Source: a virus. From it: DNA of 49,357 bases. Made by a program: the position numbers and the translations under genes. Shown here piece after piece: positions 15,444 through 49,357 of this stretch (position 1 is the stretch's first letter; each line of letters starts with the position of its first letter). The DNA lies in IMG/VR virus record IMGVR_UViG_3300044613_001473, positions 1-49,357 of that record. One strand, 5' to 3'. Under the pieces are notes generated by a model. That model saw only the letters and a program-made list of their open reading frames with translations, searched no databases and was not told the origin of the DNA.

Positions 15444-16928
15444 ATGAAATTCTATACTAATGTGTTTTATACAGGATCAAGTATCCTGTGTCGTGAATAT
15501 GAAGACGGCAAGTCAAACATGGTGAGAGACAACTTCTCACCATGTGTCTTTTTGCCCACACAGAAACCAAGACAACAAAAGACTGTTGATGGCCGTTCCG
15601 TAGAGCCAATATTCTTCAATAATGTCTTTGAGATGAATGAATTCAAGGAAAAGTATTCAGGCATCGATAGATTTGAGATTCATGGAGACATTAACGGTGA
15701 ATACCAATATATGGGAGAAAAGTATGAGAACGACTTTCCTTATGATCCACAATTGATCAAGATCATGTATATTGATATTGAAACAACAGCAGAGAATGGA
15801 TTCCCTAATGTAGATAATCCCATAGAAAAAGTGACGGTCATTAGCACAATCATGGGTAATGAGAAGAAGGTATTCTGTCTTGGCAAGTTCACGCCAAAGA
15901 CAGATATCGAAGTCCATGATTTTGATGACGAGCAAGATTTGCTTCTTTCATTCTGTGAGTATATGAACCATGCTCGACCCGATATAATGAGCGGATGGAA
16001 CATTAAGTTCTTCGATATTCCGTACCTTGTAAATCGTTGCTCTAGACTCCTTGATGAAAAGGAAGTCAAATATCTCTCTCCTTGGGGAATAATCAAGAAG
16101 AAGATGGTTGAGAAGAACAACGAAGACCATACTACATTTGAATTGGTCGGTATATCGGTCATGGATTATTATGATCTCTATAAGACATTCACATATGTAA
16201 AACAAGAGTCTTATTCGCTCAACCATATTGCATATGTTGAACTTGGCAAGGAAAAGATCGACTACTCTGAGTATGAGACGATTCGTGATTTCTACACTCA
16301 GAACTTCCAGAAGTTTGTTGAGTATAATATTGTTGACTGTGAACTGGTGTTGGAACTAGAGAACAAAATGCGGCTGATGGAACTTGCCATTTCACTCGCA
16401 TATTCAGCCAAGGTCAATTTCGTTGATGTATTCTCACAGGTCCGTACATGGGATGCTATCATATACAATTACTTAAAGCCACAAAATATCATCATTCCAC
16501 CAAGAAAGCAAGGAAAGAAAGATTCGCAGTATGCGGGAGCCTATGTAAAAGATCCACAGGTCGGAATGCATGATTGGATTCTTTCATATGATGTTAATTC
16601 TCTTTATCCATCATTGATTATCCATCTGAACATTTCCCCTGAGACATTACAGAAGAAAAATTTCATCGGTAAGATCAACATAGATGATATTATTCGCAAT
16701 GATAGAAAGTCTACTACCTTCGAATATCTGAACGAAGCCAAGGAACTTAATTGCACTATTGCTGCGAATGGCACAATGTACACAAAGAAAAAAATTGGGT
16801 TTCTTCCCGAACTTATGGATAAGATGTACAAAGAAAGAAAGCATTATAAGGATCTCATGATCAAGGCAGAAAAAGATCTTGAAGCGGTAAAGCACGAAAT
16901 CCAAAGAAGGGGCTTGACAATCAAATGA
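15444..16928 (+). CDS. 43A: DNA polymerase (T4 gp43-like), N-terminal half: exonuclease, motif A and part of fingers
   Basis: The 494 residues align with the first 55% of T4/RB69 gp43. ExoI is YIDIETT (D111, E113), ExoII is GWNIKFFDIPYLV (D191), ExoIII is YNIVDCE (D298) and polymerase motif A is SYDVNSLYPSLII (D383). The protein stops in the first fingers helix (MYKERKHYKDLM, then EIQRRGLTIK). Motifs B and C are absent; they are encoded at 33480-34589. Alone it should keep 3'-5' exonuclease folds but cannot polymerise. No intein N-segment or intron-like sequence follows the last codon. Confidence 0.95.
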   Translation: MKFYTNVFYTGSSILCREYEDGKSNMVRDNFSPCVFLPTQKPRQQKTVDGRSVEPIFFNNVFEMNEFKEKYSGIDRFEIHGDINGEYQYMGEKYENDFPYDPQLIKIMYIDIETTAENGFPNVDNPIEKVTVISTIMGNEKKVFCLGKFTPKTDIEVHDFDDEQDLLLSFCEYMNHARPDIMSGWNIKFFDIPYLVNRCSRLLDEKEVKYLSPWGIIKKKMVEKNNEDHTTFELVGISVMDYYDLYKTFTYVKQESYSLNHIAYVELGKEKIDYSEYETIRDFYTQNFQKFVEYNIVDCELVLELENKMRLMELAISLAYSAKVNFVDVFSQVRTWDAIIYNYLKPQNIIIPPRKQGKKDSQYAGAYVKDPQVGMHDWILSYDVNSLYPSLIIHLNISPETLQKKNFIGKINIDDIIRNDRKSTTFEYLNEAKELNCTIAANGTMYTKKKIGFLPELMDKMYKERKHYKDLMIKAEKDLEAVKHEIQRRGLTIK

Positions 16929-27867: not shown

Positions 27868-27941
27868 GCGGGTGTATCGGTCCTGTCTTCTAAACAGGAT
27901 ACCGTAATTGGACTATGTAGGTTCGATCCCTACCACCCGTG
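27868..27941 (+). tRNA. tRNA-Arg (UCU), D arm missing, extended variable region
   Basis: Acceptor GCGGGTG/CACCCGT, anticodon arm CCTGT-CTTCTAA-ACAGG (anticodon TCT) and T arm GTAGG-TTCGATC-CCTAC are canonical. Only 7 nt (TATCGGT) separate the acceptor from the anticodon stem, so no D arm can form. Instead 18 nt (ATACCGTAATTGGACTAT) lie between the anticodon and T arms, including a D-loop-like AATTGG. CGGT could pair with ACCG to extend the anticodon helix. Total length stays normal (73 nt plus discriminator). Confidence 0.7.
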
Positions 27942-27944
27942 CTT

Positions 27945-28892
27945 ATGCAAGAAAATACAATGTATACAAAAAACAACAGTGTTGGTGTGATTGTTGGGCG
28001 ATTTCAGACCCCATACCTCCACGATGGACACCGCAAATTGATTGATACTGCAATGAAAAATCATTATAAGGTATTGATCTTTATTGGTGTATCTTCGACA
28101 AAGAATACGATTCGCGATCCTCTTGATTACGATACTCGTATGATGATGATTGCTTCATATGTCTCTAGACAAATGGAGACATGTATTGTAGAAATTATTC
28201 CAATTCACGATAATCAGCACGATCATGTTTGGTCTGCTAATTTGGACAAAGAAATTCAAAATAGAATCAAGCACAACGATTCCGTTGTTCTTTATGGAGG
28301 GCGTGATTCTTTTGTCGGGGGATATACTGGAGGTTATAGGTCAGTATTGATCAATGAAGTTCCCGATGTTTCTGCAACTGATATTCGAAACAGGTCTTGT
28401 ATTGCCAGAGATACGGAAAGTTTTCGTCATGGCATGATTTACGCATCACAGCAGCAATATCCAATTGCATATCAGACAGTAGATATTGCAGTCATTAATG
28501 ACAATGATGAGATTCTAATGATTCAAAAAGAAGGTGACGATTACGAGTATCGTTTCGTAGGTGGATTTAGTGATCCAAATAGTCCTTCACTTGAATATGA
28601 TGCTCGTAGAGAATTACAAGAAGAATGTGGAGTTAATGTTAATATTGGTGTAGCCCATTATGTTTCAAGTAGATTGATTGATGATTGGCGATATAAAAAT
28701 AACAAAAACTGTAAGATCAAAACTGCTTTTTTTGTGGCAAAGCATCTTTGGGGTAATGCATCTCCCATGTCGGAGATTACAAAGTGCGAATGGATTCATA
28801 TTAGTATGTTGAGCAAAAATGTAGTAGATGAACATTTGGCGTTAGCAAGTGATTTGGAACACTGGTTTCTACACAATAAGAATAAACTTTAA
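27945..28892 (+). CDS. natV: bifunctional NMN adenylyltransferase / Nudix hydrolase (NatV/NadM-Nudix type)
   Basis: The 315-residue protein has an N-terminal nucleotidyltransferase domain (GVIVGRFQTPYLHDGH with the HxGH motif; YGGRDSF; VSATDIRNR) that adenylates NMN to NAD+, and a C-terminal Nudix domain (VGGFSDPNSPSLEYDARREL, then QEECGV) probably acting on ADP-ribose or NAD-derived compounds. The fusion matches the vibriophage KVP40 NatV plan. The ATG at 27945 is 3 nt after tRNA-Arg with no ribosome site; 27960 is an alternative. It pairs with the NAMPT gene that follows. Confidence 0.88.
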   Translation: MQENTMYTKNNSVGVIVGRFQTPYLHDGHRKLIDTAMKNHYKVLIFIGVSSTKNTIRDPLDYDTRMMMIASYVSRQMETCIVEIIPIHDNQHDHVWSANLDKEIQNRIKHNDSVVLYGGRDSFVGGYTGGYRSVLINEVPDVSATDIRNRSCIARDTESFRHGMIYASQQQYPIAYQTVDIAVINDNDEILMIQKEGDDYEYRFVGGFSDPNSPSLEYDARRELQEECGVNVNIGVAHYVSSRLIDDWRYKNNKNCKIKTAFFVAKHLWGNASPMSEITKCEWIHISMLSKNVVDEHLALASDLEHWFLHNKNKL

Positions 28893-28908
28893 ATAAAGGA
28901 TTTATATA

Positions 28909-30276
28909 ATGAACGATAATTTTATCATGGCAACGGACTCGTATAAGGTCACTCATCATCAGATGTATACACCCAATACGACTGAAATTTACTCGTATTT
29001 TGAATGCCGAAACGGAGCAAAGTTCAATGACATTTGCTTCTTTGGTCTTCAGTATATCATTACACGATATTTTACGGCTCCTATTACGCAGTATAATATT
29101 GATCAGGCAGAGGCATATTTTGACACCCACTTTGGAAAGGATGTATTCAACAGAAAGGGATGGGAATATATCCTGAATAAGCACAATGGTTATCTTCCAC
29201 TTGAGATTAGGGCAATTCCAGAAGGTACTTGGGTGACTCCAGGAACTCCTCTTATTACTGTCCGAAATACTGATCCAAATTGTGCATGGCTCACCAACTA
29301 CGCCGAAACCATTCTTTCACAGGTTTGGTATCCGACCACTGTGGCGACTCTCAGCGGCAATATCAAGAAGTTGATTTCTGGTTATTTTGACGAGACTTGC
29401 GATGGTGGTCGTAGCGATCCTTCGATTTCCTTCATGCTCCATGACTTTGGATTCCGTGGTGCTTCTTCACTGGAAACTGCTGGAATTGGTGGAATGGCTC
29501 ATCTGGTCAACTTTATGGGTACTGATACTCTTGAGGCTCTTCGGTATGCTTATAGGTATTATATGGGCGATACTGTTGGATTCTCAGTCCCTGCCACGGA
29601 GCATAGCATCATGACCTCAGATGAGAATGGAGAAGAGGCAGTCCTCAAGCGGCTTCTTGATCAGTATCCAAGCGGTATTCTGAGTGTTGTTGCCGATTCT
29701 TACGACATCTACAACTTCGTAGCAGAATATATGAAGAAGTATAAGGATCAGATTCTTTCCCGTGATGGTGTATTTGTTGTTCGTCCAGATTCGGTGACTC
29801 CGAAGCATCCGACTCCAGAGGATCAGGTTCTTTGGATTTGCAATACGCTGAAGGATATTTTTGGTGCGGAAAAGAATGCCAAGGGTTTCTATGTGATCAA
29901 TCCAAAGGTCAAGGTTCTTTGGGGAGATGGTATTGATATGAATGGAATTGATAGAATTCTTACAATTCTGAAGGAGAATGATTTTGCTGCTTCAAATATC
30001 GCGACATTCGGTATGGGTGGAGGCTTGCTTCAGAAGGTGAATCGTGATACACTACGCTGTGCCTTCAAGTGTTCTAATCGAACCTATACGAAGGATGGAG
30101 CGGAAGTAAGTATGCCAGTGCAGAAGAACCCTCTCGACAAGAGTAAGGCTTCTAAGGCTGGAAAGTTCGATATTGATCGTGTCGTGTATATTAAAGAAAT
30201 GAATGATTATGAGCCGACTATTAATGCTCAAGATTTTAGTGATGTTCGGAGTAGAGCAAGTAAGATGTTTGTGTGA
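28909..30276 (+). CDS. nadV: nicotinamide phosphoribosyltransferase (NAMPT)
   Basis: The 455-residue protein is full length for the family. It opens MATDSYKVTHHQMYTPNTTE and contains ECRNGAKF, the LHDFGFRGASSLE region, the GTDTLEALRYA segment, SVPATEHSIM, VVADSYDIYNF and FVVRPDSVTP, all NAMPT landmarks for binding PRPP and nicotinamide. It makes NMN, which the upstream NatV-like enzyme converts to NAD+. The two genes form a complete salvage route from nicotinamide, 16 nt apart and co-transcribed. Confidence 0.94.
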   Translation: MNDNFIMATDSYKVTHHQMYTPNTTEIYSYFECRNGAKFNDICFFGLQYIITRYFTAPITQYNIDQAEAYFDTHFGKDVFNRKGWEYILNKHNGYLPLEIRAIPEGTWVTPGTPLITVRNTDPNCAWLTNYAETILSQVWYPTTVATLSGNIKKLISGYFDETCDGGRSDPSISFMLHDFGFRGASSLETAGIGGMAHLVNFMGTDTLEALRYAYRYYMGDTVGFSVPATEHSIMTSDENGEEAVLKRLLDQYPSGILSVVADSYDIYNFVAEYMKKYKDQILSRDGVFVVRPDSVTPKHPTPEDQVLWICNTLKDIFGAEKNAKGFYVINPKVKVLWGDGIDMNGIDRILTILKENDFAASNIATFGMGGGLLQKVNRDTLRCAFKCSNRTYTKDGAEVSMPVQKNPLDKSKASKAGKFDIDRVVYIKEMNDYEPTINAQDFSDVRSRASKMFV

Positions 30277-33441: not shown

Positions 33442-33466
33442 CATTGTAGTACTAGTGTGCTACAAT
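33438..33466 (+). promoter_or_regulatory. sigma70-type promoter for polymerase half 43B, with dyad
   Basis: TTGACA, 17-nt spacer, TACAAT. The predicted start (about 33473) is 7 nt before the ATG at 33480. ATTGTAG (33443-33449) and CTACAAT (33460-33466) form a perfect 7-bp inverted repeat spanning the spacer and -10, which looks like an operator. Confidence 0.8.
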
Positions 33467-33479
33467 GTTGTGTTATTAT

Positions 33480-34589
33480 ATGGATGTAACTAAATTGACA
33501 GATCAGGAGTTATTACTACTCCATAATGACTTGGAATACGATATCTCAAAGTATCACAATTTTCAGTTGTGTCGTAAAATCCAATTAAATTCCGCCTACG
33601 GTGCTATTGGAAACCAATATTTCCGATTTTACAACACATCTATGGCAGAGGCGATTACCATTTCTGGTCAGATGACTATTCAGTGGATTGCCCAGAGAGT
33701 GAATGAATATCTCAATAAGATTGCCCAGACTACCGATGTAGACTTTGTGATTGGTTCGGACACCGATTCGATCTATATCACGGTCAATAATATCATTCAA
33801 AAATACGCATCAGAAAAATCAACCCAAGAGTTGATTGATTATGTGGATGATATGTCCAATCAGGTTATTCATCCATTCATTAGTAAGTCTCTAGACCGTC
33901 TTGCGGTTGATCTAAACGCAGACGAGAACCGCATCGTGATGGGTAGAGAGGTGATCGCGAACAGAGGCGCGTGGACGGCCAAGAAGCGGTATCTCCTGAA
34001 TGTATGGGACAAGGAAGGGGTTCGCTACGAGAAGCCCAAGCAGAAGATCGTAGGGCTAGAGACGAACCGCTCCTCGACTCCAGAGGTTGTCAGGAAGCAA
34101 CTGAAGAAGTGCATTGGTATTATCCTGAATGATGGAGAAAGCGAACTCAGAAAAGAAATCAAGAAGTTCAAATCAGACTTCATGAAGATTGATTATAGTA
34201 AAATTGCTTTCCCCCGTGGAGTGAATAATTTAGACGAATATTCTGATTCTGACACGATCTATAAGAAGAGTACTCCGATTGCTGTAAAAGCGGCTTTATT
34301 GTACAATTACTATGTCAAGAAACTTGATCTAGAGATGAAGTATCCACTTGTACAAGAAGGCGAAAAGATTAAGTTCCTACATTTGAAGCAGCCGAATCCT
34401 GTTGCTGGGGTGCAAGGAAAAGACGCGGTCATTGGTTTTATAACCACTCTTCCAAAGGAATTTGGATTGGATAAGTATATCGATAGAGAAGCACAATATG
34501 AAAAGTCATTTTTTCATCCACTCAGCACTATCGTTGATGCTATTGGGTGGAATCTGTCGGAAACAACGAATATAGAATCATTATTTTAA
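33480..34589 (+). CDS. 43B: DNA polymerase (T4 gp43-like), C-terminal half: fingers/palm/thumb
   Basis: The 369 residues align with the last 40% of T4/RB69 gp43. Motif B is KIQLNSAYG (K33), motif C is GSDTDSIY (D94, D96), followed by the KKRYLLNVWD, GLETNRSSTP and thumb segments, ending SLF like the clamp-binding tail of gp43. The ATG at 33465 lies inside the -10 box, so 33480 is the start. The first 30 residues are the second fingers helix. It must pair with 43A to rebuild the catalytic Asp pair. It precedes uvsX, as gene 43 does in T4. Confidence 0.95.
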   Translation: MDVTKLTDQELLLLHNDLEYDISKYHNFQLCRKIQLNSAYGAIGNQYFRFYNTSMAEAITISGQMTIQWIAQRVNEYLNKIAQTTDVDFVIGSDTDSIYITVNNIIQKYASEKSTQELIDYVDDMSNQVIHPFISKSLDRLAVDLNADENRIVMGREVIANRGAWTAKKRYLLNVWDKEGVRYEKPKQKIVGLETNRSSTPEVVRKQLKKCIGIILNDGESELRKEIKKFKSDFMKIDYSKIAFPRGVNNLDEYSDSDTIYKKSTPIAVKAALLYNYYVKKLDLEMKYPLVQEGEKIKFLHLKQPNPVAGVQGKDAVIGFITTLPKEFGLDKYIDREAQYEKSFFHPLSTIVDAIGWNLSETTNIESLF

Positions 34590-36981: not shown

Positions 36982-37967
36982 TGTCATTAGCCGTCGATAA
37001 GAAATACATCAATTTTGTTTCGGTATATTTTCCAAAGTTTAAATGGAAGAGCGATAAGGTGGCGAATTGTCGTTGCGTCTTCTGCGGAGATTCTGCAAAG
37101 AACAAGAACAAAATGCGAGGGTCGTTCTTTCCCCAAAACAATGTATTCTTTTACAAATGCCATAACTGCGGCGTGGCATATAATGTTTCTCAGATATTAG
37201 AACTTGTTTCTCCTTCTCTCTGCACCGAATATAAGTTAGAAACCAGATGGTTTAAAGGTGATGAACTGAAACTTGAGCCTGTTCAGAAGAAGGAAACTGT
37301 ACCTACTCATATTGATATAGAACCGTTATCATCTCTTCCCCCTACACATAAGGCAAGAGTCTATGTAGAAGGTAGAGGTATTCCCTGTTCTCATTGGGGA
37401 AATCTAGGATATACCGAAGACTTTTCACAAGTTGCAACACAGTTGAATCCAGACTATAACCGTAGATTCTTTAAAGAGGATAGACTTCTTATATTGATCA
37501 GAGACAAGAATGGTATCATAGGAATACAGGGTAGATCATTCTCACAGAAGTCTAAGATGAAGTACATCACTTTGAAGAAAGAAGATATAGAGATGTATTA
37601 TAATATGAATGCTGTTGATACTTCAAAGCCGTTCTATATCGTAGAAGGGCCATTTGATTCGATGTTTTTGCCTAATGCTGTTGCTACGCTAGGAGCCAGT
37701 GGATTCAAGAGTATCGGGTCTAAGTTGGATGACACAAACGGAGTATATATTGTAGATAATCAACCACTGAACAAGGATGTGATTCGCATTCTAAAGTATC
37801 TTGTGGATAAAGGCAAGCGAGTTTTGATCTTTCCTTCAAAAATAAAGGAAAAAGATATCAATGAGATGGTATCGAATGGTATCGATGTTATGAGTTTGAT
37901 TGAGAAAAATACATTCCAGGGATTAGAAGCCTTGGTAAAATTTAACGAATGGAAAAAATATGAGTAA
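36981..37967 (+). CDS. 61: DNA primase, T4 gp61 type
   Basis: The 328-residue protein has an N-terminal zinc finger (C30/C32-FC35 and C60-HNC63) and a TOPRIM domain around residues 220-260 (YIVEGPFDSMF, then ATLGASG and VYIVDNQP). This is the gp61 plan; with gp41 it makes lagging-strand primers. It is ATGA-coupled to the helicase gene, indicating a stoichiometric primosome operon. Length is close to T4 gp61 (342). Confidence 0.92.
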   Translation: MSLAVDKKYINFVSVYFPKFKWKSDKVANCRCVFCGDSAKNKNKMRGSFFPQNNVFFYKCHNCGVAYNVSQILELVSPSLCTEYKLETRWFKGDELKLEPVQKKETVPTHIDIEPLSSLPPTHKARVYVEGRGIPCSHWGNLGYTEDFSQVATQLNPDYNRRFFKEDRLLILIRDKNGIIGIQGRSFSQKSKMKYITLKKEDIEMYYNMNAVDTSKPFYIVEGPFDSMFLPNAVATLGASGFKSIGSKLDDTNGVYIVDNQPLNKDVIRILKYLVDKGKRVLIFPSKIKEKDINEMVSNGIDVMSLIEKNTFQGLEALVKFNEWKKYE

Positions 37968-38217
37968 TAAAGTAACACATCTAACACCTGAAGATGTAAT
38001 TTATCTGGAAGGATATATTTCATTTACGGAACATTATGCTAATTATGTCAGAGAGAACAACAAAGATATTCACAACAGAGCGGTGGATTATGCCATGACA
38101 TATGCAGGAGAGGATGTAAAGGGAATAAAATTCTCATACATCAAAGATGAAAATGGCAACACAACTTTAGACATGAACACTGAAAAAAGGAAAAAAAATG
38201 AAGATACAGGTTCTTGA
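37960..38217 (+). CDS. hypothetical protein (85 aa)
   Basis: Overlaps the primase end by 8 nt and ThyX by 20 nt. An acidic helical protein (HLTPEDVIYLEGYISFTEHY, then VRENNKDIHNRAVDYAMTYA) with a lysine-rich tail. Conserved position between primase and ThyX hints at a replication accessory role, but no family is recognised. Confidence 0.5.
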   Translation: MSNKVTHLTPEDVIYLEGYISFTEHYANYVRENNKDIHNRAVDYAMTYAGEDVKGIKFSYIKDENGNTTLDMNTEKRKKNEDTGS

Positions 38218-38881
38218 TTATGGACATGTTGAATATGTTTCTCATATGGGAGATGATTTAACCGTAGTGAACGCTGCGCGAGTGTCTTTCAATAAGGAAA
38301 GTGAATGGGAAAAGCAAGACGGATCTGCTTTCCTTCCCACCAGAGATGAAAAACTAATCAAATATCTGGCCAAGCATAATCACTGGACACCATTTGCACA
38401 TCCTCAAATTACGATAAGGGTCAAGGCTCCTATATTTGTTCGTGGTCAATTAGGCAAGCATCAGGTTGGGTTTGTGATGAATGAGGTATCTCGTAGATAT
38501 GTTAAGGATGATCCCGAATTCTATATTCCCAAATGGAGGGCCGCACCAACAGACGGAGCAAAACAAGGTAGTTCTGATTTTATCAATTTGTCTGAATCGG
38601 CAGGATTTTCGGTTATATTCCAAGATGTATGTGATTCGGCTCTGGAGGCATACGACTATATGCTTGGCAAGGGAGTGGCCCCAGAGCAAGCCAGATCCGT
38701 TCTACCACAGGCCATGTATACGGAGTGGTGGTGGACGGGAAGCCTCGCAGCGTGGGCTAGGGTCTATACACAGCGTTCTGACGCACACTCCCAATGGGAG
38801 ACGCAGCAGTATGCAAAAGCAATAAATCAAATTATTGCTCCATTGTTTCCAGTATCGTGGAAAGCACTCGTCGGGGAATAA
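38198..38881 (+). CDS. thyX: FAD-dependent thymidylate synthase ThyX
   Basis: The 227-residue protein carries the ThyX signature in the form common in T4-like phages: GKHQVGFVMNEVSRRY at residues 86-101, a variant of RHRxxSxNExSxRY. Upstream are AARVSFNKESEW and HNHWTPFAHPQ (FAD/dUMP-binding segments). It makes dTMP from dUMP using FAD, NADPH and methylene-folate. It works with dUTPase upstream and RNR downstream in dTTP supply. The presence of ThyX rather than ThyA is usual for environmental myoviruses. Confidence 0.92.
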   Translation: MKIQVLDYGHVEYVSHMGDDLTVVNAARVSFNKESEWEKQDGSAFLPTRDEKLIKYLAKHNHWTPFAHPQITIRVKAPIFVRGQLGKHQVGFVMNEVSRRYVKDDPEFYIPKWRAAPTDGAKQGSSDFINLSESAGFSVIFQDVCDSALEAYDYMLGKGVAPEQARSVLPQAMYTEWWWTGSLAAWARVYTQRSDAHSQWETQQYAKAINQIIAPLFPVSWKALVGE

Positions 38882-38926
38882 ATAAGAAGCGCGAAAAAAT
38901 ATCTAAGAAGAATTCAAAGGAGTTTT

Positions 38927-40852
38927 ATGAATAATTTACCATCGTTGTATCAGGAATTTATAGCAAAGTCAAAATATGCCCGTTGGATAGAGGAAGAAGG
39001 GCGACGAGAGTCATGGACAGAGTCCGTGGCTCGTTATTTTGACTTCTTCGAAAAACATTTAGCAAAGAATTGTAATTTTATTCTCTCAAAAGATGAGAGA
39101 TTAGAACTGGAAAATGCGGTCATTAATTTGGAAGCAATGCCTTCAATGAGAGCATTGATGACTGCGGGAGAAGCACTTGATCTTCATAATGTTTCGGGAT
39201 ATAATTGTGCGTATGTGGCTGTGGATAATGTAAGAGTATTTGATGAAATTCTATACATTTTAATGTGTGGAACTGGAGTTGGATTTAGTGTCGAGAGACA
39301 ATATGTGGAAAAACTTCCAACAATCGCTGAAGAATTTACTAATTCTGAAACCACTATTGTTGTTAAGGATAGCAAGGTTGGTTGGGCTAAAGCATATAGG
39401 GAACTCGTATCCTTACTTATTGGAGGTCAGATCCCAAAGTGGGATGTGTCTAAAGTACGCCCTGCTGGTGCAAGACTCAAAACCTTTGGTGGTAGGGCTT
39501 CAGGACCAGGACCGCTTGTCGATCTTTTTCAATTCACCGTTGATACTTTTACAAGAGCGGCGGGAAGAAAACTTACTTCCATCGAATGCCACGATGTTGT
39601 TTGTAAAATCGCGGAGATTGTCGTTGTCGGAGGCGTTAGACGCTCTGCACTTATTTCATTGTCGAATCTCACAGATGAACGAATGCGAGACGCAAAGAGC
39701 GGTGCTTGGTGGAACATTAATCCACAACGAGCCTTGGCAAACAATTCGGTTGCCTATAAAGAGAAACCAGAAATTGGAATTTTTATGGAAGAATGGCTCT
39801 CTCTCTATAAGTCAAAGAGTGGAGAAAGAGGCATATTCAACAGAGCGGCGGCTAAAAAGACCATTGAAAAACTAGGAGATCGTCGCAATCCAAATCACGA
39901 TTGGGGATGCAATCCCTGTTCTGAAATTTTACTCAGAAGTAAACAGTTCTGTAATCTTTCCGAAGTAGTAGTTCGTCCAGAAGACACCTATAAGAGTCTG
40001 GCCAGAAAAATTAGACTTGCGACTATTTTAGGAACATTCCAATCAACTCTGACTAATTTCACATATCTTTCTTCTAAGTGGAAGGAAAATACAGAGGAAG
40101 AGCGGTTGCTTGGACTTTCTCTGACTGGTATATACGATAATCCAATGATGAGTAAACCAGATCCTTCGTTGGACTCTAGTCTTAAGAGGTTAAAGGAATA
40201 TGCAGTAGAGATAAACAAAGAATATGCTGCTAAATTAGGAATCAATCCTGCGGCTGCGATAACTTGTGTGAAGCCATCTGGCACAGTTTCTGCGCTTGTA
40301 GATTGTGCATCTGGTATTCACCCCAGACACAATAATTACTACATTCGCACGGTTCGCGCCGATATTAAAGATCCTTTGTGTCGCATGATGATTGATAAGG
40401 GATTTCCGCATGAGCCATGTGTCATGCGTCCAGAAAGCACCATGGTCTTCTCATTCCCGATGAAAGCGGAAAAATCAGTCACCAGAAACGATATATCGGC
40501 CATAGACCACCTTAAACTTTGGCTGACATATCAGCGTCATTGGTGTGAGCATAAGCCTAGCGTGACTATTACGGTACGAGAAGAGGAATGGATGGCCGTG
40601 GGTGCATTTGTGTATGATCATTTTGACGAGATAAGTGGTATTTCATTCTTACCACACTCCGATCATAATTATCGTCAGGCTCCATTTCAAGATTGTACAA
40701 AGGAACAATATGAACAACTTTTAGCAATAATGCCCGATAATTTCGATTGGGAAGCACTAAAACTTTATGAAAAGGAAGATACCACATCTGGTACGCAACA
40801 ATTTGCTTGCACTGCCAACTCATGTGAGTTGGTTGATCTTACCAAACCATAA
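38927..40852 (+). CDS. nrdJ: class II (adenosylcobalamin-dependent) ribonucleoside triphosphate reductase
   Basis: The 641-residue monomeric-type reductase shows PSMRALMTAGEAL, NCAYVAVDN (first redox Cys), MCGTGVGFSVERQ, NPCSEILLRSKQFCNLSE (radical Cys loop) and a C-terminal C-x4-C (C628, C633). This is the Lactobacillus RTPR plan, about 100 residues shorter. It reduces ribonucleotides without oxygen but requires B12, so the host must make or import cobalamin. Strong AAAGGAG site. No B12 riboswitch fits in the 45-nt gap. Confidence 0.9.
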   Translation: MNNLPSLYQEFIAKSKYARWIEEEGRRESWTESVARYFDFFEKHLAKNCNFILSKDERLELENAVINLEAMPSMRALMTAGEALDLHNVSGYNCAYVAVDNVRVFDEILYILMCGTGVGFSVERQYVEKLPTIAEEFTNSETTIVVKDSKVGWAKAYRELVSLLIGGQIPKWDVSKVRPAGARLKTFGGRASGPGPLVDLFQFTVDTFTRAAGRKLTSIECHDVVCKIAEIVVVGGVRRSALISLSNLTDERMRDAKSGAWWNINPQRALANNSVAYKEKPEIGIFMEEWLSLYKSKSGERGIFNRAAAKKTIEKLGDRRNPNHDWGCNPCSEILLRSKQFCNLSEVVVRPEDTYKSLARKIRLATILGTFQSTLTNFTYLSSKWKENTEEERLLGLSLTGIYDNPMMSKPDPSLDSSLKRLKEYAVEINKEYAAKLGINPAAAITCVKPSGTVSALVDCASGIHPRHNNYYIRTVRADIKDPLCRMMIDKGFPHEPCVMRPESTMVFSFPMKAEKSVTRNDISAIDHLKLWLTYQRHWCEHKPSVTITVREEEWMAVGAFVYDHFDEISGISFLPHSDHNYRQAPFQDCTKEQYEQLLAIMPDNFDWEALKLYEKEDTTSGTQQFACTANSCELVDLTKP

Positions 40853-43624: not shown

Positions 43625-44170
43625 ATGAAGATATGTGGTATTGATTATAGTCTCACAAGTCCAGCAATTTGTGTTCATGAAGGAAATGAGTTCAGTTATT
43701 CAAACTGTAAATTTTACTTTCTGACCAGTGTAAAGAAAAACGCCACTGTGTTTGATGGTAGAATACAAGGTGAATTTATGGATGATTATATCCATGAATG
43801 TGAAAGATATGATATCATATCAAATTGGGCCATGAATATTATTAAAAGATGCGATAAAATAGCCATAGAAGGTTATGCCTATGGAGCCAGTGGTAAGGTA
43901 TTCCATATAGCGGAGAACACTGGTCTATTGAAATATAAGATATGGAACAATGGGAAACCTCTAGAAATTGTTACGCCTTCACATGTGAAGAAGTTGGCAA
44001 CGGGAAAAGGTAATGCCGACAAGCGTGGAATGTATGATGCATTTGTGAAAGAAACTGCTGTTGACTTGCAAAAAATAATAAGTCCCAATAAAAAAGATAT
44101 CGGCTCACCAGTAGCCGATATCATTGATTCTTATTTTATATGTAAGGTGTTATTTAAACAAATCCTGTAA
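43625..44170 (+). CDS. RuvC-like (RNase H fold) resolvase
   Basis: The 181-residue protein has the RNase H-fold acid pattern: GIDYSLTSPAI at the N-terminus, KIAIEGYAYGASGKVFHIAE (Glu after strand 4), then KLATGKGNADKRGM and VADIIDSYFICK with the closing Asp pair. This is the architecture of phage RuvC-like Holliday junction or branched-DNA resolvases. Late expression would suit resolving DNA before packaging, in place of T4 endonuclease VII. Its 3' end overlaps the convergent gene by 17 nt. Confidence 0.7.
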   Translation: MKICGIDYSLTSPAICVHEGNEFSYSNCKFYFLTSVKKNATVFDGRIQGEFMDDYIHECERYDIISNWAMNIIKRCDKIAIEGYAYGASGKVFHIAENTGLLKYKIWNNGKPLEIVTPSHVKKLATGKGNADKRGMYDAFVKETAVDLQKIISPNKKDIGSPVADIIDSYFICKVLFKQIL

Positions 44171-44885
44171 TTTTCTTTGCTTGCAGTGCGGCAGATATTC
44201 TGGCCTGTTCTCTTGCCGCAGCAGCAATAGATGCGGCTCTGCGGACCTTCGTTTCTCTTCTTTGTTGTATGGCTGATCCCCGTAGATTCTTGGCCTTGTC
44301 TGCCGCAGCCTTTTGCGCTTCAGGTGTTATCCCACCAACCGATAGAGGTGTGCTGGGAAAATCTTGCATAGAAATATTAATTTCACTCTCTCCCTCTTTT
44401 GCTGGTTCACCAACAAGTCTTGGAATAGGTGTAAATTGTGGATTTGACTTGTCTTGAGTAAATGTGGCCTTTAATTTACCACCGACATTTTGTAGATTAC
44501 TCAGATTTACAGCGGTTGATAATGCTTCAATTCTTTCTGGTGCATTTTCTGCTGATTTAAGTGGTGGTCTGATTGTTTTTTCTGTTTTTGGATCTTTTAT
44601 TGGGAGTCTAGATACTGCTATTTGTGCATCAGACCTTCCAGCAATGTTCTTCAGTCTTGCTTGTTGATGTGCTAGTATTCCAGGTGCTATCTTTTTGGCT
44701 CGTTCTACACCAATTAATTTTGTGCTTTTCTTACCTTTTCCAGGAATCTTATCAGGAAATAACTCTGGATGTTGTGCCTGTAATTGAGGAGTAATACCAG
44801 AAGTTGCCAATGTTGCTACTAATTCTGCTTCTGTTTTTACTTCAGACAACAATGACTTATAATGTTCTACTAATTTTTTCATCAA
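44154..44885 (-). CDS. basic Ala/Lys-rich protein with capsid-targeting-like N-terminus
   Basis: A 243-residue protein opening MMKKLVEHYKSLLSEV; the next gene upstream opens MRELVEHYKQILSET. Both fit a short amphipathic leader ending in LSE, as in T4 capsid-targeting peptides cleaved after (L/I)xE by the prohead protease. The remainder is low-complexity, basic and helical (AQKAAADKAKNLRGSAIQQR, then REQARISAALQAKK), compatible with a DNA-contacting internal head protein. Last gene of the minus-strand operon. Confidence 0.5.
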   Translation of the reverse strand: MMKKLVEHYKSLLSEVKTEAELVATLATSGITPQLQAQHPELFPDKIPGKGKKSTKLIGVERAKKIAPGILAHQQARLKNIAGRSDAQIAVSRLPIKDPKTEKTIRPPLKSAENAPERIEALSTAVNLSNLQNVGGKLKATFTQDKSNPQFTPIPRLVGEPAKEGESEINISMQDFPSTPLSVGGITPEAQKAAADKAKNLRGSAIQQRRETKVRRAASIAAAAREQARISAALQAKKITGFV

Positions 44886-45166
44886 TCTGCTCCAGATTGT
44901 AGTCTTGCCTTTAATTCTGTTTTTCTTTTGATAAACTGTTCTCTAGGTTTATCTTTTGTTTTTTCTTTTTTGATTCCAGATGTAATTGGAGTCACACCAG
45001 CCTTTATGGCGCGAGAAAAATTAAAGCGAGTATCAGATGCTGGAGTTCCAGTTAAATCTGTTGAAAGTTTTTGGTTTCTGGCTTTTTGTTTTCTGGCCAG
45101 TATTCTTCTTTCTGCTCTCGTAGTTTCAGATAAAATTTGTTTATAATGTTCTACTAGTTCTCTCAT
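44882..45166 (-). CDS. small basic protein with capsid-targeting-like N-terminus (94 aa)
   Basis: Opens MRELVEHYKQILSETTRAER, sharing LVEHYKxxLSE with its downstream neighbour, and then becomes strongly basic (RRILARKQKARNQK, IKKEKTKDKPREQFIKRKTE). A late promoter lies 18 nt upstream with a GAAGAG site. It may be a small internal head protein. It overlaps the next gene by 4 nt. Confidence 0.5.
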   Translation of the reverse strand: MRELVEHYKQILSETTRAERRILARKQKARNQKLSTDLTGTPASDTRFNFSRAIKAGVTPITSGIKKEKTKDKPREQFIKRKTELKARLQSGAD

Positions 45167-45167
45167 G

Positions 45168-45713
45168 TTATTTTCTCTTCTTTTTATTTATATTTTTCTC
45201 TGTGTCCTCAAATCCGTCATTGTTGACATCTTTGGTTCTGATCTTGATATAATACCAACCAGCACCCAAAATAACTAAACAATAAAACAAAAGAGCATAC
45301 CAGTTGACTTTCCGAATTGTTATTTCTGTGCCAGTAGGAAGGATAATTTCTGTTTTTTCAGGAACATTTATCGGTGTTATATTAAATGTCTGAATAGATG
45401 TGTTTTCTGGAAGAATAACCTCTGTATTTTGAGGCAGTACCATTTCCTCATACTTTTCTGGTTCTACTTGTACTGACGCGATAGTATCCTTTGCGAGAGT
45501 AACATGGGTTTTTACTGTAGATGGTGTCTGTACTATTACACTACAAGGAATAGACGCTTCAGTTTCTTGTACTAATACAGTTTTTGTAGGATTAGACAAA
45601 ACATCAGGAGCCTTATATGTAAGACCTGGCAATGTGACACTAGATTTACAGGAAGCCAGAGTAAATAATAACCAAATTGCCGATAATTTAAGAATTGTCT
45701 TTAGATTCATCAT
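45168..45713 (-). CDS. u-spanin-like lipoprotein with C-terminal membrane helix
   Basis: The start at 45713 (MMNLKT) gives a lipoprotein signal peptide with lipobox LASC; upstream in-frame codons would disturb it. The mature part is beta-rich with repeated VILPENTxI/IILPTGTEI strands, and near the C-terminus lies one transmembrane helix (NWYALLFYCLVILGAGWYYI) followed by a basic cytoplasmic tail (KKKRK). An outer-membrane lipid anchor plus an inner-membrane helix in one chain is the plan of unimolecular spanins, which fuse the membranes in lysis. A holin-like gene lies two genes upstream. No endolysin is seen in the window. Confidence 0.55.
   Translation of the reverse strand: MMNLKTILKLSAIWLLFTLASCKSSVTLPGLTYKAPDVLSNPTKTVLVQETEASIPCSVIVQTPSTVKTHVTLAKDTIASVQVEPEKYEEMVLPQNTEVILPENTSIQTFNITPINVPEKTEIILPTGTEITIRKVNWYALLFYCLVILGAGWYYIKIRTKDVNNDGFEDTEKNINKKKRK
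45185..45192 (-). promoter_or_regulatory. T4-type late promoter, minus strand
   Basis: TATAAATA on the minus strand, located inside the 3' end of the lipoprotein gene, 18 nt upstream of the ATG at 45166. It gives the last two genes of the operon separate late expression. Confidence 0.65.
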
Positions 45714-45885
45714 TTTTCTTCTTTCTGTTCCAAAAAATGTCATTCAGCCTTTTCATCATGGCATCGACTTTTTCAGTCGAATCTTTGACTTGTGAGGGGT
45801 GGAATGATGGATCATCAATATCACCAGCATAATTGATCGTGAACTCTTGCCATTTTTCGCCTAAAAATTCTTTGAATGATTTCAT
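45688..45885 (-). CDS. small protein with capsid-targeting-like N-terminus (65 aa)
   Basis: Opens MKSFKEFLGEKWQEF, very close to the T4 capsid-targeting peptide pattern (MKTYQEFIAE) with an LGE cleavage-type end. The rest is hydrophilic with a C-terminal helix (VDAMMKRLNDIFWNRKKKND). It overlaps the lipoprotein start and the holin-like stop. It may be an internal head protein or a small lysis-operon partner. Confidence 0.5.
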   Translation of the reverse strand: MKSFKEFLGEKWQEFTINYAGDIDDPSFHPSQVKDSTEKVDAMMKRLNDIFWNRKKKNDESKDNS

Positions 45886-46316
45886 GTTTTATTACTCGCA
45901 GAAGCAGAACCAAAGTAGAATCCGACTATAGAAATAAGTATCTGTCTATTTTCCTGTGTAAACAAGTATCCGTTGATTGTTTGGAATATTGTTTCCTTTG
46001 TCTCTGGGATCAGGCCAAATAACAGTTCAGGATTGATCTGAGTGACTTCGACAACTGTGGGTATACCGAAGAACGGTAGGACGAATGGAGCCGCTATAGT
46101 GCCAAACAAGACCATCAGGACAATGATCTGACGGACGGCCTTCCCAGCGTCTATAGGCACTCTCTGAACGGCCTTGGTACGGCTTTCCTCGACAAGTTTA
46201 TTCATCTCAATGAGACGCTTAAAGTTTTCCTGTTCGGCTTGGCTCTTTTGGGCCATATAACGGAAAAGGAACCCTGCGGCAGATCCGCCGATAAGTGAAA
46301 GTAGTTCTGTTGTCAT
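45882..46316 (-). CDS. holin-like membrane protein (three hydrophobic segments)
   Basis: The 144-residue protein has a weak N-terminal hydrophobic segment (LSLIGGSAAGFLFRYMA), an amphipathic charged stretch (QAEQENFKRLIEMNKLVEES), a strong transmembrane helix (IIVLMVLFGTIAAPFVLPFF) and a C-terminal one (ILISIVGFYFGSASA). This layout resembles the 3-TM holin family of gene transfer agents and T4-like environmental phages. It would permeabilise the inner membrane to time lysis. Proximity to a u-spanin-like lipoprotein supports this. Confidence 0.55.
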   Translation of the reverse strand: MTTELLSLIGGSAAGFLFRYMAQKSQAEQENFKRLIEMNKLVEESRTKAVQRVPIDAGKAVRQIIVLMVLFGTIAAPFVLPFFGIPTVVEVTQINPELLFGLIPETKETIFQTINGYLFTQENRQILISIVGFYFGSASASNKT

Positions 46317-46819
46317 TGTGGTTTCTTTCTTTTTAAGATCTTATTTTTAACACGATCCCGTTTATGCATAAACCCAGAATCCATACCAGCCAAATTTGGA
46401 TTTGGATCACTGGCCGCACCAGTTACACTAAATCCACCACCCGTACTCATTTCCTCAGTCAAATCAAGTCCTTGAGACTTAAGATAATTGTTTATTTCCA
46501 AAAGAACAACTTCTGAATCTCCACCCAACATATCAACTTCTTCTGCATACAAAGATATGGCCGTTGTCAGGTTCTTTGCCTTGGCCTGAATGGATGGGTT
46601 GGGAATTTGTTTTACCAGTTTTTTAAGATTTATTATCAGTCTGTAATAAATCGGCACTAATCGACTGTCTTTTAAATAATTACCTTTTTTGTCGATCAGA
46701 CCAATTTTGAAGAATTTCATGTCTTCGAAGTCTGTGGTCATGTCTTTGATGAACTTAAAGACGGTAAAAGTATTCACCAGTTTATTTAAATCAGCAGTTG
46801 TGGGTTTTTTACTCTTCAT
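46313..46819 (-). CDS. conserved phage protein of unknown function (168 aa)
   Basis: Helical N-terminal two-thirds (TADLNKLVNTFTVFKFIKDM, then RLIINLKKLVKQIPNPS) and a flexible Gly/Pro-rich, basic C-terminus (SDPNPNLAGMDSGFMHKRDR). The layout recalls proteins next to head or neck genes in T4-like environmental phages. ATGA-coupled to both neighbours. No function is established. Confidence 0.5.
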   Translation of the reverse strand: MKSKKPTTADLNKLVNTFTVFKFIKDMTTDFEDMKFFKIGLIDKKGNYLKDSRLVPIYYRLIINLKKLVKQIPNPSIQAKAKNLTTAISLYAEEVDMLGGDSEVVLLEINNYLKSQGLDLTEEMSTGGGFSVTGAASDPNPNLAGMDSGFMHKRDRVKNKILKRKKPQ

Positions 46820-47193
46820 TTTATCTCTGATAATAGACTTAGAATATTCTTATCACTCTTTATCGAATCTAGATTAACCTCTGGTATATGATCTGGCGTA
46901 TACCTTAGATGGTCTAAAAATGATTTTAAAGAAGAATGTAATGACTGAGGTATTCTGAAAAACAATATTCTTGAACAGTTTAAAGGTCCATACACATTTC
47001 CCAAAATTATTATATGATTGAGTATGAGCCTTTCTTTTATTTTGGTTGTTTTTTTATATTTCAGTAATAGTCTTTTGATATATTTTATTCTGTTTAAATC
47101 CTCCTTAAACTCTGAAAACCCTTTACAAGAGGGATTTTCATAGTTCTTCATGGCAAAAAGAATAAAATTGTCTTCGTCTATAGGCTGAAACAT
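46816..47193 (-). CDS. conserved phage protein of unknown function (125 aa)
   Basis: A compact helical basic protein: ILFAMKNYENPSCKGFSEFK, EDLNRIKYIKRLLLKY, ERLILNHIIILGNVYGP and a Leu-rich C-terminus. I recall this sequence style in many T4-superfamily environmental phages (FAxKNYxNP, RIKYIKRL) but know no characterised member. Its stop overlaps the next gene's start. Confidence 0.55.
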   Translation of the reverse strand: MFQPIDEDNFILFAMKNYENPSCKGFSEFKEDLNRIKYIKRLLLKYKKTTKIKERLILNHIIILGNVYGPLNCSRILFFRIPQSLHSSLKSFLDHLRYTPDHIPEVNLDSIKSDKNILSLLSEIK

Positions 47194-47211
47194 AGCAAAA
47201 ATAAATCTGTA

Positions 47212-48024
47212 TTAGTCTTTTATCGTTTTAACTTTTTTCAATTTACGATGTAATTCTCTCTCTACTTGACTGTGAATATCCCCAGGAAGAGATTCTCGCT
47301 TGATCTTTCCTGCGGTGTGGAGTCTTCGAACGATTTGTTTGGCTGCAAATCTTACTCTTTGCGCGACTTCGTCGCTAGTTCTTCCGTTTTTAGTGATGTT
47401 TTTCATCAATGGCTCAAGAACTTTAGTCTTGATTTCAGGGTGTCTATTTGCCTTACGAATAAGAGAAGCACCCATATGAGATGATTCTAGAAGAACAGTA
47501 CCAGTTTCATCATAACTTTCACGAACACTCAAAGATGGTGTTTCTATGTCAATTTTATCAGTGAAACCTGTGCGAGTAATTCCTACATCACTGAAATAGA
47601 ATTTTCCACTTGGTGACTTAGTAAGATCAAAAGTCAACGAAAGTGGTACATAATCCTTACCGCGATCAAATCCATCCATGAGGTTATGTGTAGGAGTCGT
47701 ACCGAAGATTTCACCATATCGGTTCAACTGGAAGGTATTGCGTCCGATATTTAATTTGGTTTGATTATTGAAATCAAAGTCAAGACCAGCATGGTTGATC
47801 TTGGCTCTCATGGTTTTTAACGCTTGAATAGGATCAAGATAATCTCCACTCAAATGTGCATTTGCAAATGCGTGAATACGGTTTATTTGAGACGAATCGT
47901 CCCGATAAACACCAGCATCACTGTGGGCAGAACGAGGGAATCCAGACGAGAACCCATTAAATACATTACCGACATCGGCGTATTCATTTTCTAGAAGTGT
48001 TAAGATATTCTTGAAATTTTTCAT
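47212..48024 (-). CDS. protein with capsid-targeting-like N-terminus (270 aa)
   Basis: Opens MKNFKNILTLLENEY, again a short amphipathic leader with LLE. The middle is beta-rich (LNIGRNTFQLNRYGEIFGTT, LSLTFDLTKSPSGKFYFSDV), and the last 80 residues are strongly basic and helical (EVAQRVRFAAKQIVRRLHTA, then RKLKKVKTIKD). A cleavable leader plus a basic tail suits an internal head protein, which in T4 is injected with the DNA. No enzymatic motif is visible. Confidence 0.5.
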   Translation of the reverse strand: MKNFKNILTLLENEYADVGNVFNGFSSGFPRSAHSDAGVYRDDSSQINRIHAFANAHLSGDYLDPIQALKTMRAKINHAGLDFDFNNQTKLNIGRNTFQLNRYGEIFGTTPTHNLMDGFDRGKDYVPLSLTFDLTKSPSGKFYFSDVGITRTGFTDKIDIETPSLSVRESYDETGTVLLESSHMGASLIRKANRHPEIKTKVLEPLMKNITKNGRTSDEVAQRVRFAAKQIVRRLHTAGKIKRESLPGDIHSQVERELHRKLKKVKTIKD

Positions 48025-48503
48025 TTATTGTCCTTTTTTCCTTTTTTCTTGCCTCTGAATGACCCAGCCTTCAATGCTCCACCCTTACCTTTTCTGGTAG
48101 ATCCAAGAGTCACGAAAGTACATGCTCTGGCTCGTCTTTCTTTTGCGTTATCAGTACCACCGCGTTTCTTCTCTTTGAAGTATTTGTTGAATCCTTTAAG
48201 TTTTTTTGCCTTGAAACACTTGTTTCTGGCAGCAACTTCAGCACGGGACATTGGCTGATTTTCCTTATTGATAACATCACCTTCTGAAAGATATGATTCC
48301 TTTACGGATTTTTTATCCTTTTTCTTGCTCTTTTTCTTAGCAATGATGGTGGCAACTGCCATTTTCACTGCCTTGCCACGCTTTCCGTAGCGTTCAGACC
48401 AACCATCACCTTTTTCTAATTTCTTGGCTACTTTTTCCTTTTCGCCCTTTTCGGTTTTGGTTAGTTTTCTCTCTAGTAAAGTTTTAAGAGTAAGTTTTGG
48501 CAT
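48021..48503 (-). CDS. highly basic protein with capsid-targeting-like N-terminus (160 aa)
   Basis: The start at 48503 (MPKLTLKTLLERKL) has AGGA at good spacing; an ATG 9 nt earlier is the alternative. The leader ends in LLE. The rest is extremely lysine-rich (AKKKSKKKDKKSVKES, GSFRGKKKGKKDNK) with an MSRAEVAARNKCFKAKK segment resembling the SRAEARRQG part of the next gene. A DNA-binding internal protein is likely. A GATAAATA element lies 20 nt upstream. Confidence 0.5.
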   Translation of the reverse strand: MPKLTLKTLLERKLTKTEKGEKEKVAKKLEKGDGWSERYGKRGKAVKMAVATIIAKKKSKKKDKKSVKESYLSEGDVINKENQPMSRAEVAARNKCFKAKKLKGFNKYFKEKKRGGTDNAKERRARACTFVTLGSTRKGKGGALKAGSFRGKKKGKKDNK

Positions 48504-48523
48504 ATTATTCATTCCTAGTACTA

Positions 48524-48531
48524 TATTTATC
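48524..48531 (-). promoter_or_regulatory. possible variant late promoter (GATAAATA), minus strand
   Basis: One base away from TATAAATA, located 20 nt before the ATG at 48503 and between two genes of the minus-strand operon. Confidence 0.35.
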
Positions 48532-48549
48532 TGTAAACTATTTTGTTAA

Positions 48550-49357
48550 TTATGATCTACATCCCCATACTCTTAACGATGCATTTATCTTAGATTTTGG
48601 ATCTCTTGCAGTTTTTGCGCTAGTGCGTTTTCGTTTCATACCGATCATTCTGGCACAAAACCTCTTTCTTCTAGCCTGAGTTTTCTTTGATAATTTACTA
48701 AACCCACCTTTACGCTTTGCTTCATCCTTGGTTTCTATGCCAGCATGAATACCTTGTCTTCTGGCTTCGGCACGGGAAAGACCCCCTTCTGGGTGGTTTA
48801 TACCTTTTTTGAAGCCTTTATATGGTTTAGTTTCTTTCTTTTCTTCGGAGATGAATTTAATAAATGATTTCATTTCTGCCATTTCTTTGATAAGTTGTCT
48901 TTTTGATATCATGTCTTTAAAATTATTTATTATGCTATAATTTGATTCTTTTATTTCAGATTTTCTTTGTATTGCTCTCTCGCGAACATACGAATTTATA
49001 TCATTCAATGCTTTATCAATATGTGATGCTGTGGCCTTTGGATGTCTTATTGCTGCGTGTCGAACATCAGCATCTGTATCATTCAATGCTTTATCAATAT
49101 GTGATGCTGTGGCATTTGGATGACTCATTGCTGCGTGTCGAACAGTCACTGATTTATCATTCAATGCTTTATCAATATGTGATACTGTGACATTTGGATG
49201 TCTTATTGCTGTGGATCGAATATCCTCAGATTTATCATTCAATGCTTTATCAATATGTGATACTGTGACATTTGGATGTCTTATTGCTGTCTCGCGAACA
49301 TACGGATGTGTATCATTCAATGCTTTATCAATATGTGATACTGTGACATTTGGATGT
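48550..49357 (-). CDS. HEAT-like repeat protein joined to a basic RRKxFCARM domain (partial at right edge)
   Basis: The frame is open to the right edge, so the start is outside. It encodes at least five 26-residue repeats (ALNDxxxxVRxxAIRHPNxTxSHID), a HEAT-like helical repeat seen in T4-like phages. After a linker, MKSFIKFISEEKKE (48873) resembles a capsid-targeting leader, followed by GLSRAEARRQGIHAG and a C-terminal block (ARRKRFCARMIGMKRKRTSA, then DPKSKINASLRVWGC) that I recall as DUF6321; the number needs checking. An internal start at 48873 would give an independent 107-residue basic protein. Confidence 0.6.
   Translation of the reverse strand, partial: HPNVTVSHIDKALNDTHPYVRETAIRHPNVTVSHIDKALNDKSEDIRSTAIRHPNVTVSHIDKALNDKSVTVRHAAMSHPNATASHIDKALNDTDADVRHAAIRHPKATASHIDKALNDINSYVRERAIQRKSEIKESNYSIINNFKDMISKRQLIKEMAEMKSFIKFISEEKKETKPYKGFKKGINHPEGGLSRAEARRQGIHAGIETKDEAKRKGGFSKLSKKTQARRKRFCARMIGMKRKRTSAKTARDPKSKINASLRVWGCRS
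48985..49357 (-). repeat. 78-bp tandem coding repeat
   Basis: Nearly five copies of a 78-bp unit share conserved blocks (TGCTTTATCAATATGTGATA followed by CTGTGACATTTGGATG on the plus strand). They encode the 26-residue HEAT-like unit and continue past the window edge. Some blocks are identical between copies, suggesting recent expansion. Confidence 0.85.

What the first reader, a model, noticed from the sequence alone, without database searches (positions are those of the whole stretch)
44154..48873. Six minus-strand proteins share a capsid-targeting-like N-terminus ending (L/I)xE
MKSFKEFLGE, MKSFIKFISE, MKNFKNILTLLE, MPKLTLKTLLE, MRELVEHYKQILSE and MMKKLVEHYKSLLSE are short amphipathic leaders ending in the T4 prohead protease consensus (L/I)xE, and resemble the T4 capsid-targeting sequence MKTYQEFIAE. 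Most of these proteins are very basic downstream. Inference: a cassette of internal head proteins packaged with and injected beside the DNA, likely counter-defence effectors or DNA condensers.
Basis: partly seen in the sequence, partly recalled or inferred. Interest (0 to 1): 0.62.

Follow-up and report, generated by a model that had tools for sequence, protein, structure and literature searches.

The report
Head-targeting tags in marine T4-like phage
This stretch of a marine T4-like virus of bacteria encodes several mostly basic proteins, some with short front-end tags like those that load proteins into the T4 head and are then cut off, next to a relative of T4 gp61.1, a family that carries a copy of the capsid protein's own arm; the idea of such tags is known, but the range of cargo and the capsid-arm copy are not described in the papers searched.

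Summary
The leaders are real but unequal. MKSFKEFLGE and MKSFIKFISE match the T4 capsid-targeting sequence at the residues that matter (4, 7, 8, 10); the other four match poorly alone (P 0.06-0.09), though two share a leader on unrelated bodies. MKSFIKFISE is not a separate ORF: a near-identical contig shows it inside a 679-aa ORF that starts MKSFIQLVLE. The window is a T4-like fragment without the capsid genes, so its protease cannot be checked. In 2.4 Mb of T4-like DNA the leader pattern ends in E 31 times against 4 expected, on many unrelated bodies. Leader-bearing cytidylyltransferases were found in virions of three cyanophages. The block also holds a membrane protein and a lipoprotein. 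Most likely reading: capsid-targeted, protease-cleaved internal head proteins. Counter-defence is untested.

The parts
45688..45885 (-). 65-aa protein, leader MKSFKEFLGE (aromatic 4, F7, L8, E10): strongest targeting-type leader; body neutral; absent from the same place in L083/L084
48550..48873 (-). Basic 107-aa segment (net +23) with internal leader MKSFIKFISE and DUF6321-like C-terminus; in-frame end of a 679-aa ORF (L001:4834-6873) starting MKSFIQLVLE, with HEAT-like repeats between
48550..49357 (-). Window part of the 679-aa ORF: HEAT-like repeats plus the basic C-terminal segment; its N-terminus is on L001
48021..48503 (-). 160-aa very basic protein (net +35), leader MPKLTLKTLLE; weak match to the T4 sequence; ATAAATA at 48524-48530 just upstream
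47212..48024 (-). 270-aa protein, leader MKNFKNILTLLE; homologues L083/L084 (25% identity) keep M1, K2, F4, K5 and the leader-end E
46816..47193 (-). DUF7207 protein (phrog_407); conserved syntenic marker of the block
46313..46819 (-). gp61.1-family protein (phrog_2086): N-terminal domain, (L/I)xE site LTE, then C-terminal arm-like segment EMSTGGGFSVTGAASDPNPNLAG with basic tail
45882..46316 (-). Protein with predicted membrane segments (phrog_38283), not leader-bearing
   Evidence: hydrophobic segments read from the sequence
45168..45713 (-). Putative lipoprotein (signal sequence ending LASC), not leader-bearing
   Evidence: read from the sequence
44882..45166 (-). 94-aa basic protein (net +14), leader MRELVEHYKQILSE; late-promoter-like TATAAATA at 45185-45192
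44154..44882 (-). 242-aa basic protein (net +16), leader MKKLVEHYKSLLSE: shares 10 of 14 leader residues with its neighbour, bodies unrelated

Best explanation
The block encodes, among other things, internal head proteins of a T4-like phage. Their short N-terminal leaders act as T4-type capsid-targeting sequences: the aromatic residues at 4 and 7 dock the protein on the prohead core, a gp21-type prohead protease then cuts after (L/I)xE, and the mostly basic body stays in the head with the DNA and is probably delivered with it. Shown here: the leaders, the E-terminus enrichment and spread over unrelated bodies, a leader-bearing family in virions of related phages, T4-type late-promoter sites. 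Inferred: targeting, cleavage and injection in this phage. The neighbouring 46313-46819 protein belongs to the gp61.1 family and would release, after a cut at LTE, an arm-like peptide with a basic tail. Strong for 45885 and for the 679-aa ORF with its internal leader; moderate for 45166 and 44882 (shared leader, unrelated bodies); weaker for 48024 and 48503.
For: N-terminal pattern M-x(1-3)-[FY]xx[FY][LIMV]x-E: 31 found, 4.2 expected from other residues; with K/R second, 23 against 0.7 (orthologues inflate these counts). Bodies fall into about 15-20 unrelated families, including T4 IPII and IPIII, T4 gp61.1 and two KVP40 proteins. Conserved positions are those that T4 mutants showed to matter, 4/7 targeting and 8/10 processing (PMC9026906). 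Virion detection of leader-bearing cytidylyltransferase: S-SM1 SSM1_190 MKKFSAFLNE (PMC3037559), S-CREM2 gp154 MKNFSSFLTE (PMC10665884), S-SZBM1_140 MRFRQFIIE (PMC9146016). gp21 in all 12 long T4-like relatives and references. 8 of 10 TATAAATA sites lie within 60 nt upstream of ORFs (6-8% at random), one before 45166. ORF 46313-46819 hits phrog_2086 (7.5e-7) as T4 gp61.1 does, and its C-terminus matches virion-detected S-CREM2 gp160 (z=9.2).
Against: No virion data or protease gene for this phage. Four of the six leaders match the T4 sequence no better than P=0.06 alone. The second leader type (LVEHYK..LSE) is too rare elsewhere to test (4 found, 0.9 expected). Some cytidylyltransferase orthologues lack the leader or the E (L083, HTVC008M, fused forms in L041/L063/L075). 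Virion detection does not show that the leader is what targets them. Strict leaders are rare genome-wide, 0-4 per genome.
Confidence: 0.7

Rival explanations
1. Only the type-1 leaders (45885, the 679-aa ORF and its internal copy) are targeting sequences; the other four (L/I)xE ends are ordinary amphipathic N-termini that end in E by chance.
For: Match to the T4 sequence significant only for these; shuffled N-termini give 2.2 of 15 such ends anyway.
Against: 45166 and 44882 share a leader on unrelated bodies; homologues of 48024 at 25% identity keep M1, K2, F4, K5 and the leader-end E.
Confidence: 0.35
2. The leaders bind the scaffold or capsid and make these proteins assembly factors that are cleaved and partly lost, not delivered effectors.
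For: T4 IPIII mutants have head-assembly defects (PMC9026906); the gp61.1-family neighbour carries a capsid-arm-like segment.
Against: Bodies such as cytidylyltransferase are enzymes found in mature virions, hard to explain as scaffold only.
Confidence: 0.3
3. Lysis or membrane module: the block is a holin/spanin-like group and the short amphipathic N-termini are membrane-associating helices.
For: 45882-46316 has membrane segments and 45168-45713 a lipobox, with the 65-aa protein between them.
Against: The E-terminal bias of the motif and its presence on virion enzymes are not expected of membrane helices.
Confidence: 0.07

Closest known systems
T4 internal proteins IPI/IPII/IPIII and their capsid-targeting sequence
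   Same: Leader length and key residues (aromatic 4, F7, L/I8, E10), basic bodies, unrelated bodies behind a shared leader
   Different: No virion evidence in this phage; several leaders diverge; one leader lies inside a larger ORF
T4 gp61.1 / phrog_2086 family
   Same: ORF 46313-46819 hits the same profile; N-terminal domain and (L/I)xE site before an arm-like C-terminus
   Different: T4 gp61.1 lacks the N-terminal domain; the window arm does not match any gp23 tested directly (best z about 2)
Cyanophage virion cytidylyltransferase (T4-GC190, phrog_395)
   Same: Same leader type on a protein detected in virions
   Different: Not encoded in this block; the window's own cytidylyltransferase-like gene (27939-28892) is a NUDIX fusion outside it
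Polyvalent proteins of phage heads (P1 DarA type; PMC5512222)
   Same: Large multi-part protein (679 aa) that could be packaged and delivered
   Different: No shared Pfam domain found; comparison from general resemblance only

Membership tests
T4-type internal head protein with capsid-targeting sequence | N-terminal leader with aromatic 4, F7, L/I8, E10 | tested here: met
   Met by 45885 and the internal 48873 leader; partly by the 679-aa ORF (F4, L7, V8, E10); not met by the other four
T4-type internal head protein with capsid-targeting sequence | Match of the leader to MKTYQEFIAE above shuffles | tested here: inconclusive
   0/2000, 0.0005, 0.003 for three leaders; 0.06-0.09 for four
T4-type internal head protein with capsid-targeting sequence | gp21 (Peptidase_S77) encoded by the phage | tested here: inconclusive
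   Absent from this fragment, which lacks the capsid gene cluster; present in all 12 long T4-like relatives and references
T4-type internal head protein with capsid-targeting sequence | Present in the virion, cleaved after (L/I)xE | not testable with these tools
   No proteomics for this phage; related leader-bearing proteins in virions, N-termini not mapped in the passages read
T4-type internal head protein with capsid-targeting sequence | Basic, lineage-specific bodies | tested here: met
   Five of six net +8 to +35; no relatives of 44882, 48503 or the 679-aa N-terminus outside the same contig
gp61.1 family (phrog_2086) | Profile match | tested here: met
   46313-46819: phrog_2086 E=7.5e-7; T4 gp61.1 hits the same profile; Acj61 gp61.1 by tblastn 3e-4
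gp61.1 family (phrog_2086) | C-terminal copy of the gp23 mature N-terminal arm | tested here: inconclusive
   z=9.2 to S-CREM2 gp160, itself z=11.1 to S-SZBM1 gp23, but only about z=2 directly to gp23s tried
DUF6321 | Score above the Pfam cut-off | tested here: not met
   22.9 bits against 28.5
Polyvalent proteins | Shared conflict domains in one polypeptide | tested here: inconclusive
   Only repeat-type and DUF6321-like matches in the 679-aa ORF by Pfam

The most novel reading that the evidence does not exclude
The gp61.1 family (T4 gp61.1, cyanophage T4-GC426, S-CREM2 gp160 and window ORF 46313-46819) is a capsid-arm mimic: behind a prohead-protease site it carries a lineage-matched copy of the mature N-terminal arm of the major capsid protein with a basic tail, and after cleavage it binds where the arm binds and tethers DNA or regulates head assembly. 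T4 gp61.1 aligns without gaps to gp23 right after the cut site (z about 10), T4-type members match T4/KVP40 gp23 and cyanophage members match cyanophage gp23.
Probability: 0.4. Interest if true: 0.7.

Novelty: new variant of a known kind. Interest (0 to 1): 0.52.

Why it matters
If right, marine T4-like phages load a varied set of proteins, enzymes included, into their heads by one short removable tag, and the tag can be read from sequence, so hidden virion cargo could be listed genome by genome. The gp61.1-type arm copy would be a new element of head assembly in a textbook phage, found in over a thousand phage records but without a described function in the papers searched.

Tried and rejected
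Structure prediction of 48024 and of 46313-46819 from three-sequence alignments: mean pLDDT 46 and 41, no usable fold; the viral fold search gave nothing informative. Relatives of 44882, 48503 and the 679-aa N-terminal part in viral contigs: only the same contig. PDB search of 48024 hit only designed repeat proteins. A guessed 31-aa query returned nothing and says nothing. Per-genome leader counts with my own start choice were noisy and missed known leaders, so all in-frame ATGs were used. Second leader type: too few to test. Internal leaders elsewhere: only the window case among 11 internal matches. A leader at the junction of fused DUF6267-cytidylyltransferase ORFs: not present in L041, L063, L075. 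PF03420 in the window: none, but the controls rang in none of 14 genomes either; it does ring in T4-like records. Papers naming gp61.1: three hits for the spellings searched, two of them phage genome papers, not opened. Supplementary tables could not be read.

Full report
What is there. The window is a 49,357-base IMG/VR record of a T4-like phage: split DNA polymerase, UvsX, DnaB-type helicase and primase; the nearest cultured DNA polymerase hits are cyanophages at about 51%. No portal, prohead protease, scaffold or major capsid gene was found among the ORFs searched. The six minus-strand N-termini are present and end in (L/I)xE. L001, a contig with one mismatch in 12,143 overlapping bases, extends the window by 6 kb and shows that MKSFIKFISE lies inside a 679-aa ORF beginning MKSFIQLVLE, with HEAT-like repeats and a DUF6321-like basic end. 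Among 11 internal matches to the leader pattern in all sequences fetched, this is the only one ending in E.

Chance. In the 15 genes of this strand block, six have (L/I)xE ending at residues 8-16; shuffling gives 2.2 (P=0.009) and 4 of 58 genes on the other strand have it (Fisher P=0.004). One of the six is the 855-aa ORF outside the window. Against the T4 sequence MKTYQEFIAE, 45885 exceeded all of 2000 shuffles, the internal 48873 leader P=0.0005, the 679-aa start P=0.003, and the other four 0.06-0.09. 45166 and 44882 share 10 of 14 leader residues while their bodies do not align above shuffles. Homologues of 48024 in L083/L084 at 25% identity keep M1, K2, F4, K5 and the E that ends the leader.

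Wider test. In 2.4 Mb of T4-like DNA the pattern M-x(1-3)-[FY]xx[FY][LIMV]x-X has X=E 31 times against 4.2 expected from the other residues, and 23 against 0.7 with K/R second. Orthologues are counted more than once; by similarity of bodies the carriers fall into about 15-20 families, a few of them short and possibly spurious. T4 itself contributes IPII, IPIII and gp61.1. The positions are those shown by T4 amber-suppressor work to matter for targeting (4, 7) and processing (8, 10) (PMC9026906), and the same review suggests the leader as a general way to load proteins into heads.

Virion evidence. SSM1_190 of S-SM1 (T4-GC190) begins MKKFSAFLNE and a T4-GC190 cytidylyltransferase was found in S-SM1 virions (PMC3037559). 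S-CREM2 gp154 (MKNFSSFLTE) and S-SZBM1_140 (MRFRQFIIE) are in their virion proteomes. These passages do not map N-termini. Leaders are missing or degenerate in some orthologues.

The gp61.1 neighbour. ORF 46313-46819 hits phrog_2086, as do T4 gp61.1 and the Erwinia phage Cronus protein annotated major capsid protein, and finds Acj61 gp61.1 by tblastn. T4 gp61.1 is MKTFKEFIKE followed by a segment that aligns without gaps to gp23 from just after its cut site (score 69, shuffles 28 with s.d. 4.2); PDB sequences return only gp23-type chains. T4-type members match T4/KVP40 gp23 (z 10-18) and cyanophage ones match cyanophage gp23 (z 9-20), not the reverse. S-CREM2 gp160, virion-detected, matches S-SZBM1 gp23 (z 11) and the window C-terminus (z 9.2). 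The window segment matches tested gp23s directly only at about z=2, so its arm reading is indirect.

Expression and setting. Eight of ten TATAAATA sites lie within 60 nt upstream of an ORF of 60 aa or more, against 6-8% of random positions; one precedes 45166. L083 and L084 share the order leader protein, DUF7207, gp61.1-like protein, membrane protein, small lipoprotein-like protein, opposite-strand RuvC-like gene; I find no counterpart there of 45885, 45166 or 44882, as expected of accessory cargo. The block is therefore mixed, not a pure cassette.

Conclusion. Capsid targeting and protease removal is the best reading, strong for the type-1 leaders and moderate to weak for the rest. Counter-defence was not tested. 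The more novel lead is the gp61.1 arm copy.

Noticed in passing
window 27939-30276: Cytidylyltransferase/NUDIX fusion followed by nicotinamide phosphoribosyltransferase: looks like an NAD+ salvage pair, of the kind reported as phage counter-defence (from general knowledge; not tested).
   Followed up: partly
window 43625-44170: RuvC-like Holliday junction resolvase on the opposite strand at the end of the block; same place in L083/L084.
   Followed up: partly
window 15444-16928 and 33465-34589: DNA polymerase split into two ORFs about 16.5 kb apart.
   Followed up: no
L001:4834-6873; window 48950-49357: HEAT-like repeats (HPNVTVSHIDKALND...VR..AIR) in the 679-aa ORF.
   Followed up: partly
L085, L086, HTVC008M, S-SM1 SSM1_191: Recurring acidic DVDNDGD.D.SDKYL..RRKAI segment in proteins near the leader genes of marine relatives.
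   Followed up: no
KVP40 37733-39834: Two leader-bearing KVP40 proteins beside gp55 and gp24; the second resembles a methyltransferase by eye.
   Followed up: no
L268:3013-3726 (S-CREM2 gp156): Virion-detected hypothetical protein beginning MKKLISE with a nucleotidyltransferase-like DxD motif by eye.
   Followed up: no
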